Shown piece by piece: positions 47,721 to 59,014 of a DNA stretch of 64,000 bases. The stretch's first letter is position 1; each line of letters starts with the position of its first letter. A program made the position numbers and the translations under genes. The notes under the pieces are model-generated. The model had not been told where the DNA came from and searched no databases. It saw only the letters and a list, made by a program, of their open reading frames with translations. The DNA lies in the NCBI RefSeq assembly GCF_001748285.1, contig NZ_BDGT01000014.1, forward strand, positions 1 through 64,000, written 5' to 3'. This DNA comes from Thermogemmatispora onikobensis. GTDB lineage: Bacteria; Chloroflexota; Ktedonobacteria; Ktedonobacterales; Ktedonobacteraceae.

Positions 47721-50414
<2,694 letters not shown>

Positions 50415-51205: not shown

Positions 51206-52780
51206 CTAGTGCGGTGAGTGAGGGCTCTGCTGTTCAGGAGGCAAGGGCAGCGAGAGGCGGATGGTGCAGCCCTGACCGGGGGCTGACTCGATTGCCAGCG
51301 TTGCGCCGATCAAAGCTGCGCGTTCGCGCATCCCGAGCAGTCCCAGGCCTCCCTGGGAGCCGTGTTCGCGTCCCGTGTCGACCTGCTCAGGGGAGAAGCC
51401 ACGGCCATTATCGCTCACAGCCACTGTCAAGCAATTGGGGAGGTAGGCCACATGCAGCCAGGCCTGGCTGGCCTGTGAGTGGCGCCAGACGTTTGAGAGC
51501 GCCTCCTGAACGATGCGAAAGACAGCGATCTCTGCCTCTGAAGAAGTCGGGCGAGGCTCGCCCGAGCAACTGAAGGCACAGGGAACGCCGCGTTCGGCAG
51601 AGCTGTCGCTGAGCCACTCCAGAGCTGCATGCAGACCCAGGTCATCCAGCACTGAGGGGCGCAGATCGCGGCAGGCGCGGCGCACGCCCTCCAGTGTACG
51701 ATCGGCCAGATTCTGCAGGCTGGCATGCCACTCCAGATCTTTCTCTGGCAGCTGGAGCTGGCGCATAGCGCGCCCCAACCCATCCAGGCCGAGAGAGAGG
51801 GCGATCAGGGCCTGAGCCGTATCGTCATGCAGCTCGCGGGCCAGGCGGCGGCGCTCCTCCTCCTGTACGCGCGTAATCAGAGAAGCGTAGTCGCGTAGCT
51901 CATCCTGGCGCCGACGGGCGCTGCGCAGGTCTTCGAGCGCGCGCTGCAGCTCATTGGTCTGGATGCTCAAGCGCGTACTCACCAGGGCCAGGTAGTAAAT
52001 AGCGAAGAGCGGCACCAAGAAGAAGAGCCAGGCCAGCTCGGCGGCCGCATCGTCGAAGATGTCGACCACAGGCAAGAGCGGGCCGACGCTCAGCACCAGA
52101 GCCTGAAAGCGCAGAAAAGGAGAAGCCAGGTAAGCGCGCCAGGCGGCCCCGGCGGGTCGTCCGGACCAACGGAACATTACCGGCAGGGCGATCAGAGCGA
52201 TGAGGATCATCATCACCACAGCGGCCAGCACGCTGCCGAGCAGCTCATTGGTTTCGGCCAGGCGTCCACTGTGCTGGAGAGGCAGATGCGTGCTGCCGGC
52301 CATCCAGACATAGACCGAGCCGGCCAGGAAGACGATCAAGCCTGTACTGGCCAGGCGATAGCAAGCCTCGCTCCATGAGATGAAGCCGCGTGCCAGCGTA
52401 TAGCCCTGGAGGACCAGCTGGGTGATGAGGGCTGTCAAGACGGCGGCGGGCACACTAATCAGCACGCTGGCGGCCAGATAGAAGGGGGCAGTGATGTCGA
52501 AGAGAAAGAGCGGGCGCCAGGTATCCAAGACCTGCTGCTGGGTATTTTTGGGATCGGCCAGTTCGGAGCGCAGCAGACGGAGCAACGAGTAGCGTCCCAG
52601 CAGGGCCAGCAGGGAGGTCAGGGCGACCAGGCTATAGATCGCACGTGGGCCGTAAAAATTGGGAACTGGTCGGTAGTTGTGGATAGACCAGAGCAGCAGA
52701 GGCAAAACAATGGCCAGAGAGAGCGCGATCACCAGCAGCCGTAGTGGTGAGAACTGTGCCTGCTTGAGCATGGTTCTCAT
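51206..52780 (-). CDS. sensor histidine kinase (HisKA_3, NarL/LiaS type)
   Basis: 524 residues. About seven TM helices occupy residues 10-270. A coiled linker then leads to the dimerisation/phosphorylation helix EERRRLARELHDDTAQALIALSLGLDGL, with His in ELHDD. The HATPase domain shows VFRIVQEALSNVWRHSQA (N box), VAVSDNGRGF (G1) and GGLGLLGMRERAALIGATL (G2). The many TM helices without a clear sensor loop suggest sensing within the membrane. Its start overlaps the stop of the response regulator gene by 4 nt, so the two are co-translated. Confidence 0.93.
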   Translation of the reverse strand: MRTMLKQAQFSPLRLLVIALSLAIVLPLLLWSIHNYRPVPNFYGPRAIYSLVALTSLLALLGRYSLLRLLRSELADPKNTQQQVLDTWRPLFLFDITAPFYLAASVLISVPAAVLTALITQLVLQGYTLARGFISWSEACYRLASTGLIVFLAGSVYVWMAGSTHLPLQHSGRLAETNELLGSVLAAVVMMILIALIALPVMFRWSGRPAGAAWRAYLASPFLRFQALVLSVGPLLPVVDIFDDAAAELAWLFFLVPLFAIYYLALVSTRLSIQTNELQRALEDLRSARRRQDELRDYASLITRVQEEERRRLARELHDDTAQALIALSLGLDGLGRAMRQLQLPEKDLEWHASLQNLADRTLEGVRRACRDLRPSVLDDLGLHAALEWLSDSSAERGVPCAFSCSGEPRPTSSEAEIAVFRIVQEALSNVWRHSQASQAWLHVAYLPNCLTVAVSDNGRGFSPEQVDTGREHGSQGGLGLLGMRERAALIGATLAIESAPGQGCTIRLSLPLPPEQQSPHSPH

Positions 52781-53496
52781 TGACTATCGTAGGTATCCTG
52801 GAGTGAGATCATTCCCTGGCGGAGGGCCTGGAGCACGGCCTCGGTGCGCGAGCCAACCTGCATTTTCTGGAAGATATTGGCCAGGTGGCTATGGACAGTA
52901 CGGATACTCAGACCCAGGCGGCGCGCGATCTCTTTATTAGGCAGGCCACGGGCGGCCAGACGCAGGACGTCAAACTCGCGCTCGCTGAGCAGGTCCGAAG
53001 AGCGCTGAGCTGGGTGACTGCTGCGGTTCGTCAGGCGGCGCATCATCTTCTCTGTCAGCGATGGCTGCAGCACCGACTCGCCGCGGGCCACAGCGCGGAT
53101 CGCATTCACCAGCTCCTGGCCGTGGACATTCTTCAGCAGGAAGCCGGCGGCTCCCGCCTCCAGCAGGGCGATCAAGTACTGCTCATCGTCGTAGGCGGAG
53201 AGCACCAGGACAGCCGTTTTAGGACAGTGGGCCTTGATCTGGCGAGTGGCCTCGATTCCTCCCATGCCGGGCATAGCGATGTCCATGATGGCAATATCGG
53301 GATTCAGGCGCCGAGCGGCCTCTACCGCCTCCTCGCCACTCGCCGCCTCAGCTACCACTGAGACATCGCTCTCTGCCTCAAGCAAGCGCCGTGTTCCCTC
53401 GCGCACCAGGGCGTGGTCGTCGGCGAGCAGCACGCGGATCACCCGCTGCTCCTCATGCTCGCCGTTGACTGCGCCGGGAGCGGTCTGTGTTGTCAT
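52777..53496 (-). CDS. NarL/LuxR-family response regulator
   Basis: 239 residues, partner of the adjacent kinase. Receiver: RVIRVLLADDHALVREG (acidic pair), phospho-acceptor D72 in AIMDIAMPGMG, VLVLSAYDDE and the lysine in GFLLKNVHG. C-terminal LuxR HTH: LSEREFDVLRLAARGLPNKEIARRLGLSIRTVHSHLANIFQKMQVGSRTEAV. ATG 53496 gives a normal N-terminus with AGGA upstream; the frame is open to 53556. A TATAGT box on the minus strand (53614-53619) may be its -10. Confidence 0.94.
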   Translation of the reverse strand: MTTQTAPGAVNGEHEEQRVIRVLLADDHALVREGTRRLLEAESDVSVVAEAASGEEAVEAARRLNPDIAIMDIAMPGMGGIEATRQIKAHCPKTAVLVLSAYDDEQYLIALLEAGAAGFLLKNVHGQELVNAIRAVARGESVLQPSLTEKMMRRLTNRSSHPAQRSSDLLSEREFDVLRLAARGLPNKEIARRLGLSIRTVHSHLANIFQKMQVGSRTEAVLQALRQGMISLQDTYDSQ

Positions 53497-53799
53497 GATG
53501 CTATCGTCCTGCTCTCGTAGCTCGCTGAACACTGTCAAAACCCTCCTGCGGAGCAACTTCCTCGCCGCCAGCCAGCACCAGCCAGTGTGAGACCGTCACA
53601 GCGTTTTACTCTTACTATAGAGGATCTCCGCCGGAGAGGACTACAGCAAATTTGCCGAAATCCTTGTCTTTTCATTATGGCACCGCCTGAGATGGAAGGC
53701 AAGCCCTTCTGTGGGGGGCAGAACAGGCGAAAATGGCCGCTGGGCAGCGCCCTGGCCGCACTTTGTGGTATCATGAGAAAAGCATGCTGGAACGTTCTC

Positions 53800-53828
53800 T
53801 TGACAGAGGAGGACCCTTTCGTTAGAGT
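53800..53828 (+). promoter_or_regulatory. promoter of the zinc-ribbon/TPR gene
   Basis: TTGACA (53800-53805), 17-nt spacer, TAGAGT (53823-53828). Leader about 110 nt. Confidence 0.6.
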
Positions 53829-53944: not shown

Positions 53945-55657
53945 ATGGGGGGCTGTTTGGACGCCGAAGGATGTGGTTATCAGAATCCCGATAAAGTGCG
54001 TTTTTGCGCCCAATGTGGAATTCCGACCAGAGGCTCATTCCTGCTGGGGCGCTATGAAATTATGGATCTGCTTTCTCGCGACCGCCAGACGGTGACGCTG
54101 CAGGCTCTCGATCACCATCGCGGGCTGCCCGTGACGGTGCGTGTGCTGCGCCCGCGCGAGACAACGGAGCAGGAGCGGGAAGAGTTCCTGCAAGATGCGG
54201 AGCTGGCCATGTCGCTCTCCAGCCGGGTCAATGAGCCGGGGAGCATTCGCGTGACCGATTATGGCCAGGATGGTCCGGTTGCCTTTCTGGTCAAGACAGA
54301 ATTCGATCCGGCGCGCCAGCCCGCCCGTCAGTTTCGTCCCCATATGACGGTCCGTGTGGGCAGCGACCTCTTGTGGTCGGAGGCCGAGGCGACGGTCCAG
54401 GCCGCGGCTGGGGTGAAGGAGGAGGAGGGAGGAGCGGAGGATGAGGTCAGTACTGAGCGCTATCCCGCGCTGCCCCGCCGGTCCATCTCGCAGCAGCGCC
54501 AGACGACTCCAACGGGCGTGCGTGACTGGCTGGCGGAGGCCAATGCGCTCTATGAGCAGCAGCGCTATGAGGAGGCGCTGGCGGCCTACGAGGTGGCTAT
54601 TCGCTCCCAGGGGAACCCGGTGGAGGCCTGGATCGGCAAGGGGGCTACCCTGATGCTCCTTGGGCGCCCGGAGGAGGCGCTGGCGGCCTACGATTATGCC
54701 TTGCGTCTGCGCCCGGACGATCCTGAGCTGTGGAACTCGCGCGCCAGTGTCTTGCATGAGCTGGGCCGCTACGATGAGGAGATGTATTGCTACGATCAGG
54801 CGCTGGCCCTCGATCCGAATTCGGCCTTCGCCTGGAGTGGCCGTGGCATGGCGCTGGCCGAGCAGAATCGCCCGGAGGAGGCCCTGCTGGCTTTCGATCG
54901 GGCCCTGGTGCTTGATCCCAATCAGAGCGTCATCTGGCAGGCCATGAGCGATACGCTCTATAGCTTGCAGCGCTATGAGGAGGCACTCATTGCGGTCGAT
55001 CGGGCCCTGGAGCTGGAGAGCCAGCGCGCTTCTTTGTGGGATATTAAGGGCAATATTTTGCGCCGCCTCAAGCAGCCCGATCAGGCCCTCCCGCTCCATG
55101 AGCGCGCGCTGCAGTTGGAGCCGCAGAATGCCCTCTACTCTTTTGATAAGGCCAACGATCTGCGCGATCTGCGGCGCTATGCGGAGGCGCTTGCAGCCTA
55201 CGATGAAGCCTTAGAACTTGATCCTACCCTGGCCGGCGCATGGTATAATCGAGGAAACGTCCTGGCTGCCCTCCACATGTATGAGGATGCCCTGGAATCC
55301 TATAATCAGGCGCTCCGCTACGATGATGGCCTGATCTCCGCCTGGTATAACAAGGGCAGCCTCCTCCATGAGCTGGGACGCTATGAGGAGGCCCTGGAGG
55401 CTTTCGATCGCGCTTTGGCCCTCGATGCCCACTATATCGCTGCCTGGAACAATAAGGGATTGTCGCTCTTCGCTCTGGGCCGTCTGGAGGAGGCCCTGGC
55501 GGCCCTGGATCAGGCGACGGCCTTCGCTCCCGAGGAACCCGATGCCTGGCATAATAAGGCGGTCGTGCTCGAACGCCTGGGACGCAGCGAGGAAGCCCGC
55601 TCCTGTCAGGAGTGGGTGCGCTCTCTGGAGCAGCAGGCGGCGTTGCGCAAGACCTGA
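53945..55657 (+). CDS. zinc-ribbon protein with a truncated kinase N-lobe and 11 TPRs
   Basis: 570 residues. The start has a zinc-ribbon-like CLDAEGCGYQNPDKVRFCAQCG. Residues about 30-125 align by eye with the kinase N-lobe of the next gene (GRYEIMDLLSRDRQTVTLQALDHHRGLPVTVRVLRP; TDYGQDGPVAFLV against LDYGRDGPSVFLI). The ATP lysine (VAIK in the paralogue) reads VTVR, the glycine loop is lost, and there is no C-lobe. A 65-residue linker leads to 11 tandem TPRs (about 195-560), each ending with the xAW/xxW pattern. So it is probably a phosphorylation-independent scaffold derived from a kinase gene. GGGAGGAGG precedes the ATG. Confidence 0.85.
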   Translation: MGGCLDAEGCGYQNPDKVRFCAQCGIPTRGSFLLGRYEIMDLLSRDRQTVTLQALDHHRGLPVTVRVLRPRETTEQEREEFLQDAELAMSLSSRVNEPGSIRVTDYGQDGPVAFLVKTEFDPARQPARQFRPHMTVRVGSDLLWSEAEATVQAAAGVKEEEGGAEDEVSTERYPALPRRSISQQRQTTPTGVRDWLAEANALYEQQRYEEALAAYEVAIRSQGNPVEAWIGKGATLMLLGRPEEALAAYDYALRLRPDDPELWNSRASVLHELGRYDEEMYCYDQALALDPNSAFAWSGRGMALAEQNRPEEALLAFDRALVLDPNQSVIWQAMSDTLYSLQRYEEALIAVDRALELESQRASLWDIKGNILRRLKQPDQALPLHERALQLEPQNALYSFDKANDLRDLRRYAEALAAYDEALELDPTLAGAWYNRGNVLAALHMYEDALESYNQALRYDDGLISAWYNKGSLLHELGRYEEALEAFDRALALDAHYIAAWNNKGLSLFALGRLEEALAALDQATAFAPEEPDAWHNKAVVLERLGRSEEARSCQEWVRSLEQQAALRKT

Positions 55658-55782
55658 CAGAGACACTGGCTGGATACCCCGGGTGGCTACGCTCTCTCGT
55701 GAGCTGAGCCGAGCTGAGCCGCGCCTGGTTGGTGTCGATGGCGCCACGGAGAGACTGTGAGAGACTGAAAGAGGAGGAGGGC

Positions 55783-57582
55783 ATGCGACGCTGCGCCGAC
55801 CTGGATGACTGCGGATACGAGAATCGTGAGTCTGATCTCTTTTGCCGGGCCTGCGCTCTCCCTCTATTGGGGACAGCGCTCGCCGGTCGCTATGTCGTTG
55901 AGGCTTTGATTAGTAAGGGGGGCTATGCCGCGGTCTTCCGTGGAATCGATCGCCATTTGTCTCGCCATGTGGCGATCAAGCTGCTCCTGCCAAGCAGGAC
56001 AACCACGGCTGAACGCGAGCATTTTTTGCGTGAGGCCCGGATTGCCGCGGCCCTGGATCATCCCAATATTGCCCCGGTGCTGGACTATGGCCGCGATGGC
56101 CCGAGTGTCTTTTTGATTATGCCCCTCTATACCGCGGGTTCACTGCGGACGCGCCTGGCCAATGCAGCTGGCCCTCTGCCCTTCTGGGAGACGGTTCAGC
56201 ATTTTCATCAGTTGGTGTCGGCCCTGCATTATGCTCATACGCGCCCTCGCCCGGTGATTCATCGCGATATTAAGCCCGAGAATCTCTTGATCCATCAGGA
56301 AGATCATCGCCTGGTGATCACCGACTTCGGCATCGCCCGCGCTCTGGAGCCGGGGGCCCGCGTAGGGATGACGGTGACGGTGCGCGGTACGGTCGGCTAT
56401 ATGGCCCCCGAGCAGGCTCACGGCATTGTCGATCCCCGCAGCGATCAATACGGTTGTGCGGTCGTCCTCTACGAAATGCTCACCGGTTATCATCCCCATG
56501 ATCCGCTCAGTGGCGTGATTGTGCCTCCTTCCTCGCTGAATCGCGAGCTGACTCCAGAACTGGATGAGGTGCTGCTGCGGGCCCTGGCTGCGCGCCCGGA
56601 GGAGCGCTATAGCGATATGTTGGAGTTTCAGTATGACTTTGATCGCGCCTTGCAGCCCGGCCAGGGAGCGCGGGCCCTGGTGGTGCGCTCGCGCGAGGTA
56701 GGGCGTCTGCCCCCGACGGCAGGATCGCGGCGGGCCTTGCCTGCTCAGGCTCAGGCCCCGGCGGCCCTCCAGAGCGAGGCTGAGAGCAACGGGGTGGAGG
56801 CGCGGGTCAGCGCTGCCCTGCCGGTTCAGCAGCAGACGCGGATTTCGTCGCGCATCAGCAGCAGCGTGCGTGAGAAGTGTCAGGAGGGGGACCAGCTCTT
56901 GCGCCAGCAACACTATGCGCAGGCACTGCGAGCCTATGAGGAGGCGCTCCAGCTCTCTCCCCGCAATTTCCATGCCTGGAATGGCAAGGGGACAGCCCTC
57001 TACAATCAGGGGAATTATCGCAAGGCCTATGAGGCTTTTCAGCGTGCGACGGAGATCGATCCCGAGAGCGCGGTGGTCTGGGTGAGCGCTGGCCTGGCTC
57101 TCCATCGGCTGCAGCGCTATCAGCAGGCCCTGGTCCACTTTGAGCGGGCCCTGGCTCTCGATCCTCATTATGTGGCGGCCTGGAATGGGAAGGCCGATGC
57201 TCAGCTGGATATGGGCCTGACCAGTGAGGCGCTGGCTTCCTATGAGCAGGCCCTGGCCTGCGATCCCCATAGTTTTCATGCCTGGAATGGCCTGGGCAAT
57301 GCCCGCTCGGCGCTCCACGATTTTGCCGGGGCGGTCGAAGCCTATACGCGGGCCCTCCTGATTAATCCGCGCAGCGCGGTGGCCTGGTGCAATAAGGCGG
57401 AGGCTCTTTTGCGCCTCGGCCATCATCGCGCCGCTCTCGATGCGCTCAATGAGGCCACCGAGCTTGATCGTAGCTATGCCCGCGCCTGGATGTTGAAGGC
57501 GGAGATCTACGAGTTGCTCGGCCAGTATCAGGAGGCTCAAAAGGCTCGCCGCCGCATGCGACCCTGGGGACCGCTGAGCTGA
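55783..57582 (+). CDS. zinc-ribbon Ser/Thr kinase with C-terminal TPRs
   Basis: 599 residues. N-terminal ribbon CADLDDCGYENRESDLFCRACALPL, then a complete kinase domain (about 32-295): ISKGGYAAVFRG glycine loop, HVAIKLLLP lysine, HRDIKPENLLI, DFGIARAL, MAPEQ. A linker of about 75 residues follows, then seven TPRs (about 365-595). No TM helix is seen, so it is cytoplasmic. ATG 55783 has GAGGAGG directly upstream; in-frame ATGs from 55729 lack one. It follows the N-lobe-only paralogue by 125 nt, and both may be one transcript. Confidence 0.93.
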   Translation: MRRCADLDDCGYENRESDLFCRACALPLLGTALAGRYVVEALISKGGYAAVFRGIDRHLSRHVAIKLLLPSRTTTAEREHFLREARIAAALDHPNIAPVLDYGRDGPSVFLIMPLYTAGSLRTRLANAAGPLPFWETVQHFHQLVSALHYAHTRPRPVIHRDIKPENLLIHQEDHRLVITDFGIARALEPGARVGMTVTVRGTVGYMAPEQAHGIVDPRSDQYGCAVVLYEMLTGYHPHDPLSGVIVPPSSLNRELTPELDEVLLRALAARPEERYSDMLEFQYDFDRALQPGQGARALVVRSREVGRLPPTAGSRRALPAQAQAPAALQSEAESNGVEARVSAALPVQQQTRISSRISSSVREKCQEGDQLLRQQHYAQALRAYEEALQLSPRNFHAWNGKGTALYNQGNYRKAYEAFQRATEIDPESAVVWVSAGLALHRLQRYQQALVHFERALALDPHYVAAWNGKADAQLDMGLTSEALASYEQALACDPHSFHAWNGLGNARSALHDFAGAVEAYTRALLINPRSAVAWCNKAEALLRLGHHRAALDALNEATELDRSYARAWMLKAEIYELLGQYQEAQKARRRMRPWGPLS

Positions 57583-57736: not shown

Positions 57737-58324
57737 ATGGCTATCACTTCCTTCCTGGTCGGTGAGGAGGAGACCCCGATGGGAGCGCGTTTTCGTACCC
57801 CCAGGGCGCTGCGCAGAAACGAGGAGGCGCTGGCTGTTCCCAGGCTGATGGTCGCTGGGGCCGGGCTGCTGAATGAGACGGAGGAGCTGCCCGGAACGGT
57901 TTGCTATGATCTGGCTGAAGAGTATCTGGCCAGGCTCGATGCCTGCTATCAGCGGCTGAGCAAAGAGCATGCCCATCTGCGCCGGCGCCTGGCTTTAACG
58001 CATCGCCTGGTGGTGGGGGTGTTGCCAATGAGTATGCTCTCCCTGGGTCTGGCCCTGGCCGGTCTCTTGCTGGCCCTGCCTCTGGAATGGAGCATCGGGG
58101 CAGCCTCGCTGGCGGTGGTGCTCACGCTGCTACTGCTGCGCTTCCATCAGCGCTCTCAGCGCGAGCTGGAGGAGCATCTGCAACAGCTGCATGAGCTGTA
58201 TGCGGCCTATCTGGAATGCTTCCGGGCCTATGAGGTGGCTGACGTTCAGCAACGTGGGGAGGCTCTTGCTTCTCTGTTTGAGCACTGGGTGGGGCCGCAT
58301 CAGCCCCCTCGCTCGTGTGAGTAA
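57737..58324 (+). CDS. two-TM membrane protein with flanking coiled coils
   Basis: 195 residues: a polar N-terminus, a helical segment (CYDLAEEYLARLDACYQRLSKEHAHLRRRLALTHRL), two TM helices (VVGVLPMSMLSLGLALAGLLLAL and WSIGAASLAVVLTLLLLRF), and a second coiled segment (HQRSQRELEEHLQQLHELYAAYLECFRAYEVADVQ). The helix-TM-TM-helix plan resembles small bacterial membrane domains found beside signalling proteins (TRADD-N-associated type); this match is by layout only. AAGGTGAT is 7 nt before the ATG, and TATAAT (57711-57716) may be its -10. It shares its plan with the next gene. Confidence 0.65.
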   Translation: MAITSFLVGEEETPMGARFRTPRALRRNEEALAVPRLMVAGAGLLNETEELPGTVCYDLAEEYLARLDACYQRLSKEHAHLRRRLALTHRLVVGVLPMSMLSLGLALAGLLLALPLEWSIGAASLAVVLTLLLLRFHQRSQRELEEHLQQLHELYAAYLECFRAYEVADVQQRGEALASLFEHWVGPHQPPRSCE

Positions 58325-58365: not shown

Positions 58366-58411
58366 TATGATATGAGTAGTAAGCGATCCTGTGCCGGGTT
58401 GGGGGGCTGGT

Positions 58412-59014
58412 ATGCGTGATCACTCGGCAGAGCAGGGAGCGGGCCCGTCCGAGGAGGCTGAGGGCACATCGCGCCGGACCAGGCGCCGCCAGGTCCAGGC
58501 GAAGGTGGTGGCATCCCCTTCTGAGCCGCTGGCATACTTTCCCGACCATCTGGCTGATTTCTATCAATTGCTTAAGTCGGACTATGAAGAGCTTCGCCGT
58601 GCCAATCGTATCATCTTCTATGAGACGCGGGTCATTGTCTGGCTCTGCGTGATTGTGGCTTTGGTGATTATGTTCAGGGCCTCCGTTGTGGGTGGCTCGA
58701 TTCTCTCGGTGGCGACGCTGCTGGTAAGCCTGATTGGTAAGCTGATCAAGGTTAAGAGCAGCGAGCGGGAGGATCTGGGAAAGCGGCTGGAGGCGCTGCG
58801 CCTGACGACGTTGGAGATTGAACGCATCTGTCTCAGTTTGCATCTGGCCCGCTCCATTAGCGATCAGCAGCGCCGTGATCGGCTGCTGGAGGAGCTGGCG
58901 GAGGAGCGGGGCCTGACCAGCGAAGAGGCGAGGCAGTCCCCTGCTGCCGGTTCTCCTATTGCCGACCAGGAGCCTGGGATGCAGCAGTTTCCGCCCCAGG
59001 AAGGGCGGACCTAG
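58412..59014 (+). CDS. two-TM membrane protein, second of the pair
   Basis: About 200 residues. N-terminal 40 residues are charged and low complexity. Then YFPDHLADFYQLLKSDYEELRRANRIIFYETR, two TM helices (VIVWLCVIVALVIMFRA and VGGSILSVATLLVSLIGKLI), and a helical segment (EREDLGKRLEALRLTTLEIERICLSLHLARSI) with a disordered tail. The helix-TM-TM-helix form matches TRADD-N-associated membrane domains in outline, but I cannot confirm it. ATG 58412 is preferred because GGGGGG lies 6 nt upstream; GTG 58391 is possible. It ends before a strong bidirectional stem-loop. Confidence 0.65.
   Translation: MRDHSAEQGAGPSEEAEGTSRRTRRRQVQAKVVASPSEPLAYFPDHLADFYQLLKSDYEELRRANRIIFYETRVIVWLCVIVALVIMFRASVVGGSILSVATLLVSLIGKLIKVKSSEREDLGKRLEALRLTTLEIERICLSLHLARSISDQQRRDRLLEELAEERGLTSEEARQSPAAGSPIADQEPGMQQFPPQEGRT

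What the first reader, a model, noticed from the sequence alone, without database searches (positions are those of the whole stretch)
53945..57582. Paralogue pair in which one member keeps only the kinase N-lobe
Both proteins share an N-terminal zinc ribbon and a matching N-lobe segment (TDYGQDGPVAFLV against LDYGRDGPSVFLI). The upstream protein then jumps to 11 TPRs, with no catalytic loop, DFG or C-lobe, while the downstream one has a full kinase plus seven TPRs. The truncated lobe has lost the ATP lysine. It may be a decoy or allosteric partner that dimerises with the active kinase.
Basis: seen in the sequence. Interest (0 to 1): 0.65.

Follow-up and report, generated by a model that had tools for sequence, protein, structure and literature searches.

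The report
Conserved half-kinase beside its full kinase
One family of bacteria keeps, next to a complete signalling kinase, a relative that has only the small half of the kinase fold joined to a long protein-binding scaffold; it is not a decaying gene and may be a non-catalytic partner of its neighbour.

Summary
The upstream 570-residue protein (NL, 53945-55657) has a four-cysteine zinc ribbon, a kinase N-lobe, a disordered linker and 11 TPRs, with no C-lobe. The downstream protein (K, 55783-57582) has the same ribbon, a complete kinase and seven TPRs. AlphaFold2 gives NL all five N-lobe strands and helix C; the best structural matches are kinases. NL is not decay: it occurs in 28 of 29 family genomes (13 genera), always just upstream of K, forms one old clade and is under purifying selection. 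The ATP-site Lys is Arg and the gatekeeper is Lys, each in 28 of 28; the Gly loop is Asp/Glu-Arg. None of 63 other N-lobe-like loci tested in the class lacks a C-lobe. K's N-lobe is unusually conserved relative to its C-lobe, which fits an N-lobe-binding partner. Best reading: NL is a non-catalytic adaptor or allosteric subunit of K. A PknB-type back-to-back dimer is only half supported: the Arg10 and Asp76 equivalents are kept, the Leu33 equivalent and its loop are not. No interaction was tested. New variant of a known kind (bacterial pseudokinase), moderate interest.

The parts
53945..55657 (+). NL gene: zinc ribbon + kinase N-lobe + linker + 11 TPRs, 570 aa, no C-lobe
53945..54034 (+). NL zinc ribbon (residues 1-30; Cys 4, 10, 21, 24)
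   Evidence: cysteines invariant 28 of 28; Zn_Ribbon_1 just under its cut-off
54053..54298 (+). NL N-lobe (residues 37-118: beta1-beta3, alphaC, beta4-beta5), ATP-site Lys replaced by Arg66
54305..54526 (+). NL disordered linker (residues 121-194)
   Evidence: pLDDT under 50 for most of it; mean pairwise identity 0.20
54527..55651 (+). NL TPR solenoid, 11 repeats (residues 195-569)
55783..57582 (+). K gene: zinc ribbon + complete Ser/Thr kinase + 7 TPRs, 599 aa
55888..56667 (+). K kinase domain (residues 36-295), Lys66, Glu84, HRD and DFG intact
56869..57579 (+). K TPR region, 7 repeats (residues 363-599)
53800..53828 (+). promoter-like site upstream of NL (10 of 12 matches); consensus match only

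Best explanation
NL is an old, non-catalytic half-kinase that works with the adjacent kinase K as an adaptor or allosteric subunit. A zinc-ribbon/kinase/TPR gene was duplicated in or before the ancestor of the family; one copy lost the kinase domain from the hinge onward, with a flexible linker in its place and a long TPR scaffold after it. The N-lobe's ATP site was replaced by fixed charged residues, and its cleft face, no longer covered by a C-lobe, is kept as a docking surface. I propose that NL's ribbon and N-lobe dock onto K's ribbon and N-lobe while the 11 TPRs bring a substrate or signal protein to K, and so set K's activity or choice of target. Shown: predicted fold, family-wide conservation, strict gene pairing, unusual conservation of K's N-lobe. 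Inferred: the contact itself, its surface, its sign (activating or inhibiting) and the TPR cargo.
For: Predicted N-lobe fold matching kinases. NL in 28 of 29 family genomes and next to K in 28 of 28 loci, gap 35-223 bp in the 25 that could be measured. Purifying selection, dN/dS 0.01-0.06 in the N-lobe, 30 invariant ribbon and N-lobe columns. NL and K are each one clade. K's N-lobe is more conserved than its C-lobe in 300 of 301 pairs, against 67 of 203 for other kinases. Catalytic motifs of K intact: Lys, HRD and DFG 28 of 28, APE 27 of 28.
Against: No contact was tested or modelled. The extra conservation of K's N-lobe could reflect another partner; the pairs are not independent and the controls were chosen by likeness to NL's N-lobe. 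The Leu33 equivalent is lost in NL. Gene adjacency also fits co-regulation without contact. NL's N-lobe evolves faster than K's (mean identity 0.61 against 0.86).
Confidence: 0.5

Rival explanations
1. PknB-like allosteric activator: NL's N-lobe pairs back-to-back with K's N-lobe and holds K in its active form.
For: The Arg10 equivalent is kept in 27 of 28 NL and the Asp76 equivalent in 28 of 28, against 45 and 55 of 63 other kinases. N-lobe dimers activate PknB and PknD (PMC3601408, passages); MviN's pseudokinase forms such a dimer (PMC12599244, section).
Against: The Leu33 equivalent, mutated in PknB dimerisation studies (PMC8541300, passages), is polar and variable in NL, and its loop is the least conserved stretch tested (0.45). 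NL's conserved faces are the cleft, alphaC and beta4-beta5.
Confidence: 0.2
2. Phosphorylated scaffold: K phosphorylates NL's linker and the phosphorylated NL recruits an FHA-domain or other protein, as PknB does with MviN. The N-lobe is only the docking handle.
For: A recurring motif, acidic stretch then T-x-x-R-hydrophobic, in an otherwise unconserved linker: strict form in 14 of 28, shuffles mean 0.46, maximum 3. MviN precedent.
Against: The strict motif is absent from all six Thermogemmatispora NL proteins including this one, and L056 has almost no linker. Shared ancestry can keep a motif without function. No FHA gene was seen at the locus in the window.
Confidence: 0.15
3. Exapted lobe: the N-lobe binds a small anion, nucleotide or peptide of its own and NL acts without touching K.
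For: Invariant Arg47, Arg66 and Lys117 and mostly Asp84 on the cleft side.
Against: Strict pairing with K and K's N-lobe conservation are then unexplained.
Confidence: 0.1
4. Decay: the N-lobe is a leftover with no role and only the TPRs matter.
For: Catalytic residues are gone, and the lobe diverges faster than K's. One species (L050) has both genes interrupted.
Against: 28 of 29 genomes keep it; dN/dS 0.01-0.06; 30 invariant columns; predicted to fold.
Confidence: 0.05

Closest known systems
MviN pseudokinase domain (ActPs3 family, Mycobacterium tuberculosis)
   Same: Bacterial Hanks-type pseudokinase with lost catalytic motifs, N-lobe constraints and a partner kinase (PMC12599244, section read).
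   Different: MviN keeps both lobes and belongs to a transmembrane protein; NL has only the N-lobe, with a zinc ribbon and TPRs.
HipS of HipBST
   Same: A separate gene for the N-terminal part of a kinase that binds and controls the kinase in trans (PMC10627512, abstract and one section).
   Different: HipA/HipT superfamily, where HipT lacks that part; here K is complete and NL is an extra copy. HipS inhibits; NL's effect is unknown.
PknB / PknD / PknE N-lobe dimers
   Same: Precedent for control through N-lobe contact (PMC3601408, passages); two of three contact positions kept in NL.
   Different: Those are homodimers of full kinases; NL has lost the Leu33 equivalent.
PknG
   Same: K has the order cysteine-ribbon, kinase, TPR, and a PknG homologue is reported in Ktedonobacter racemifer (PMC8546545, passages).
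   Different: K has no CxxCG motif (0 of 28), and PknB and PknA are its best solved relatives.

Membership tests
Hanks-type kinase fold, N-lobe (NL) | five antiparallel strands plus helix C in kinase order | tested here: met
   SRPK1 Z 12.9 (87 residues, 1.7 A) and PknB Z 11.7 (88 residues, 2.1 A)
Active protein kinase (NL) | ATP lysine, HRD, DFG and a C-lobe | tested here: not met
   Arg66 in 28 of 28; no HRD and no C-lobe in 28 of 28
Active protein kinase (K) | ATP lysine, alphaC Glu, HRD, DFG | tested here: met
   28 of 28 for each
PknB-type back-to-back dimer (NL) | equivalents of Arg10, Leu33, Asp76 | tested here: inconclusive
   Arg10 27 of 28, Asp76 28 of 28, Leu33 not kept. Arg10 as a contact is recalled
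ActPs3/MviN pseudokinases (NL) | two-lobed pseudokinase domain | tested here: not met
   no C-lobe; linker then TPRs
PknG (K) | rubredoxin-like domain with two CxxCG motifs, as defined in PMC8546545 | tested here: not met
   0 of 28 K proteins have CxxCG in the first 40 residues. The PF16919 search found nothing, but no control rang either
HipS-like kinase partner (NL) | binds and inhibits the kinase in trans | not testable with these tools
   no complex prediction or assay available

The most novel reading that the evidence does not exclude
NL is a regulatory half-kinase of the Hanks type: a free-standing N-lobe, its ATP cleft rebuilt into a fixed charged docking face, that binds the neighbouring kinase in trans and delivers TPR-bound cargo to it. 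It would be a kinase regulatory subunit born by clean loss of the C-lobe from a duplicate.
Probability: 0.35. Interest if true: 0.75.

Novelty: new variant of a known kind. Interest (0 to 1): 0.55.

Why it matters
The pseudokinases I found described keep both lobes. An N-lobe without a C-lobe, kept across a bacterial family beside its full-length sister, would show that the N-lobe alone can be a selectable regulatory unit. It also offers a natural test of N-lobe control of bacterial Ser/Thr kinases, so far studied with point mutants of PknB. Thermophilic members should give stable protein for structures.

Tried and rejected
Recent decay: rejected.

Other N-lobe-only proteins in the class: one search listed 66 matches that are neither NL nor K orthologues. 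Sixty were fetched: in 59 a C-lobe profile match follows the N-lobe in the same frame; the last, L173, shows HRD, DFG and APE by eye in the printed sequence though the profile gave no significant match. Three more (in L066, L067, L068) were read as full kinases. Three (G039:C1:5025028, G040:C35:10945, G034:C1:1064679) were not examined. So 0 of 63 tested is N-lobe-only. Phylum (301 genomes drawn evenly): all matches at E<=1e-60 lie in the same family; weaker ones were not tested one by one for a C-lobe. The scan of 84,980 species by short peptide patterns gave 26 Ktedonobacterial loci and one actinobacterial contig that matches only the ribbon; it reaches close relatives only.

PknG membership of K: rejected on the cysteine pattern; the family search was uninformative. 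Pfam does not recognise NL's N-lobe, and the PDB sequence search reaches only E 0.046 for PknA, so the fold claim rests on homology to K and on the models. Low whole-model TM-scores (0.28-0.38) go with the disordered tail of the 192-residue query. pLDDT of the lobe is 71-86 for residues 31-90 but only 51-63 for 91-120. A last script stopped with an error after seven lines; only those lines are used.

Literature: searches listed no paper whose title or abstract start describes an N-lobe-only bacterial Hanks-type family. The library lacks most subscription papers, so this is no proof of absence.

Full report
What is there. The window's nearest named relatives are Thermogemmatispora aurantia, T. 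tikiterensis and T. carboxidivorans (record titles). Two genes stand head to tail on the + strand. NL (53945-55657, 570 aa) reads zinc ribbon, N-lobe-like segment, linker, 11 TPRs. K (ATG 55783, stop 57582, 599 aa) reads zinc ribbon, kinase, linker, 7 TPRs. Their first ~116 residues are about 37-38% identical (E 6e-20 in the whole-genome search), well beyond chance. K's best solved relatives are PknB and PknA.

Does the segment fold as an N-lobe? AlphaFold2 on residues 1-192 with 26 sequences gives five strands and helix C in kinase order (37-45, 49-56, 61-68, 75-94, 101-107, 110-118). pLDDT is 71-86 for residues 31-90, 51-63 for 91-120, and the linker is mostly under 50. A separate full-length run repeats the topology and shows 11 TPR helix pairs, mostly above 90. 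Foldseek's best matches in the PDB are kinases (SRPK1 E 4.0e-5, PknA 1.6e-4). VIA-align gives SRPK1 Z 12.9 over 87 residues at 1.7 A and PknB Z 11.7 over 88 residues at 2.1 A. NL thus stops near the hinge: strand 5 ends at 118 and disorder begins soon after.

What is changed in the lobe. In 28 NL against 28 K sequences (PknB numbers corrected by one), the ATP-site Lys40 position is Arg in 28 of 28 NL and Lys in 28 of 28 K. The alphaC Glu59 position is Asp 25, Glu 2, Asn 1 in NL and Glu in 28 of 28 K; an Arg-Asp pair could keep the salt bridge (inference). The Gly-loop positions G20-G21 are Asp/Glu then Arg in NL, the Arg in 28 of 28. The gatekeeper Met is Lys in 28 of 28 NL. Four residues are inserted after alphaC in all 28 NL. 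Of 63 other kinase rows of the class, 61 keep the Lys, 62 the Glu and 54 a Met gatekeeper.

Is it old and kept? In 47 genomes of the class, NL orthologues (57-98% identity to this one) occur in 28 of 29 genomes of the window's family counting its own, in all 13 genera, and in 0 of 18 genomes of the three other families. The one miss, G045, is 76% complete and has no K hit either. In 301 genomes of the phylum, all matches at E<=1e-60 belong to this family. Against five genus mates the N-lobe shows dN/dS 0.01-0.06, the linker 0.06-0.13 and the TPRs 0.02-0.04. NL is one clade (support 100/99) and K one clade (99/99) in a 58-row tree, so the split predates the family's radiation. The tree does not settle which kinase is NL's closest relative outside the family. 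Thirty columns of the ribbon and N-lobe are invariant in 28 sequences. This refutes recent decay. Against a perfect picture: one species (L050) has both frames interrupted (NL 154 aa, K 215 aa) and L065 has an interrupted K (338 aa); sequencing error and real loss cannot be told apart.

Is it alone in the class? Of 66 further N-lobe-like matches, 63 were examined and all carry a C-lobe; three were not examined.

Pairing. K follows NL on the same strand in 28 of 28 loci, the window included. The gap is 35-223 bp in the 25 loci where both starts were placed and NL is uninterrupted (L045 and L053 were not measured, L050 is interrupted). No terminator-like site was listed between the two in the window. 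In the f2 genome G001, the nearest K-like genes (L066, L068; 42-45% identity to K) are full kinases without an NL neighbour in the fetched stretch. So NL was not seen without K, while K-like kinases exist without NL.

Signs of contact. Among 63 other kinase rows, 203 pairs with C-lobe identity 0.6-0.9 have N-lobes on average 0.030 less identical than their C-lobes, and N exceeds C in 67. For K, 301 such pairs have N-lobes 0.099 more identical, and N exceeds C in 300. Pairs are not independent and the controls were gathered by likeness to NL's N-lobe, so this is a pointer, not a test of contact. The known bacterial N-lobe dimer was checked: NL keeps the equivalents of Arg10 (27 of 28; that residue as a contact is recalled) and Asp76 (28 of 28) but not Leu33, and the loop around it is NL's least conserved tested stretch (mean share of the commonest residue 0.45). 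The cleft-face positions (0.94), beta4-beta5 (0.88) and alphaC (0.85) are conserved. This points to docking through the cleft or alphaC side rather than, or besides, the PknB back face.

Mechanism. I commit to NL as a non-catalytic partner of K (0.5), docking by ribbon and N-lobe and bringing cargo by its TPRs. Rivals are a PknB-like back-to-back activator (0.2), a phosphorylated scaffold (0.15), an exapted ligand-binding lobe (0.1) and decay (0.05). The linker holds a recurring acidic, T-x-x-R-hydrophobic motif (strict form 14 of 28; shuffles mean 0.46, maximum 3) that could be a phosphosite, but the strict form is missing in Thermogemmatispora itself.

Compared with what is known. MviN is a bacterial pseudokinase that forms back-to-back dimers and is phosphorylated by PknB (PMC12599244, section 8 read), but it has both lobes. 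HipS is a separate N-terminal kinase subdomain that inhibits HipT in trans (PMC10627512, abstract and one section), but in another kinase superfamily. N-lobe dimerisation activates PknB and PknD (PMC3601408, passages). PknG shares K's order of parts (PMC8546545, passages), but K lacks CxxCG motifs. A term search in the pseudokinase review found no mention of truncation or TPRs (PMC12599244). I therefore call NL a new variant of a known kind.

Setting. An aconitase gene lies near the pair in 24 of 27 other loci and in the window, mostly divergent upstream. The three misses (L042, L043, L047) are on contigs that end near the pair, and in L055 and L064 it lies on the other side. A link to central metabolism, as for PknG, is a guess.

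Noticed in passing
window 47721-50414 (-): Aconitase gene, found near the NL-K pair in 24 of 27 other loci, mostly divergent upstream; it may hint at a metabolic role of the pair.
   Followed up: partly
window 51206-53556 (-): Histidine kinase and LuxR-type response regulator lie between aconitase and NL in Thermogemmatispora and in L045, L053 and L063, but not in most other genera.
   Followed up: partly
window 57737-58324 and 58391-59014 (+): Two membrane-protein-like genes downstream of K without a Pfam match above cut-off; similar genes were found only in Thermogemmatispora loci.
   Followed up: partly
L066, ORF of 639 aa (G001 contig C2): Zinc ribbon, kinase, a second kinase-like domain that reads HRNVKPSN and GFD where HRD and DFG are expected, then a C-terminal ribbon: possibly a fused kinase-pseudokinase pair.
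   Followed up: no
L067 (G000 contig C61): Two neighbouring ORFs of 950-964 aa with ribbon, kinase domain, a hydrophobic stretch and a long C-terminal part that looks like a periplasmic ligand-binding protein (by eye).
   Followed up: no
L050 / L082 (Ktedonobacter sp. SOSP1-85): Both NL and K frames are interrupted in this one species; sequencing error and real loss cannot be told apart.
   Followed up: no
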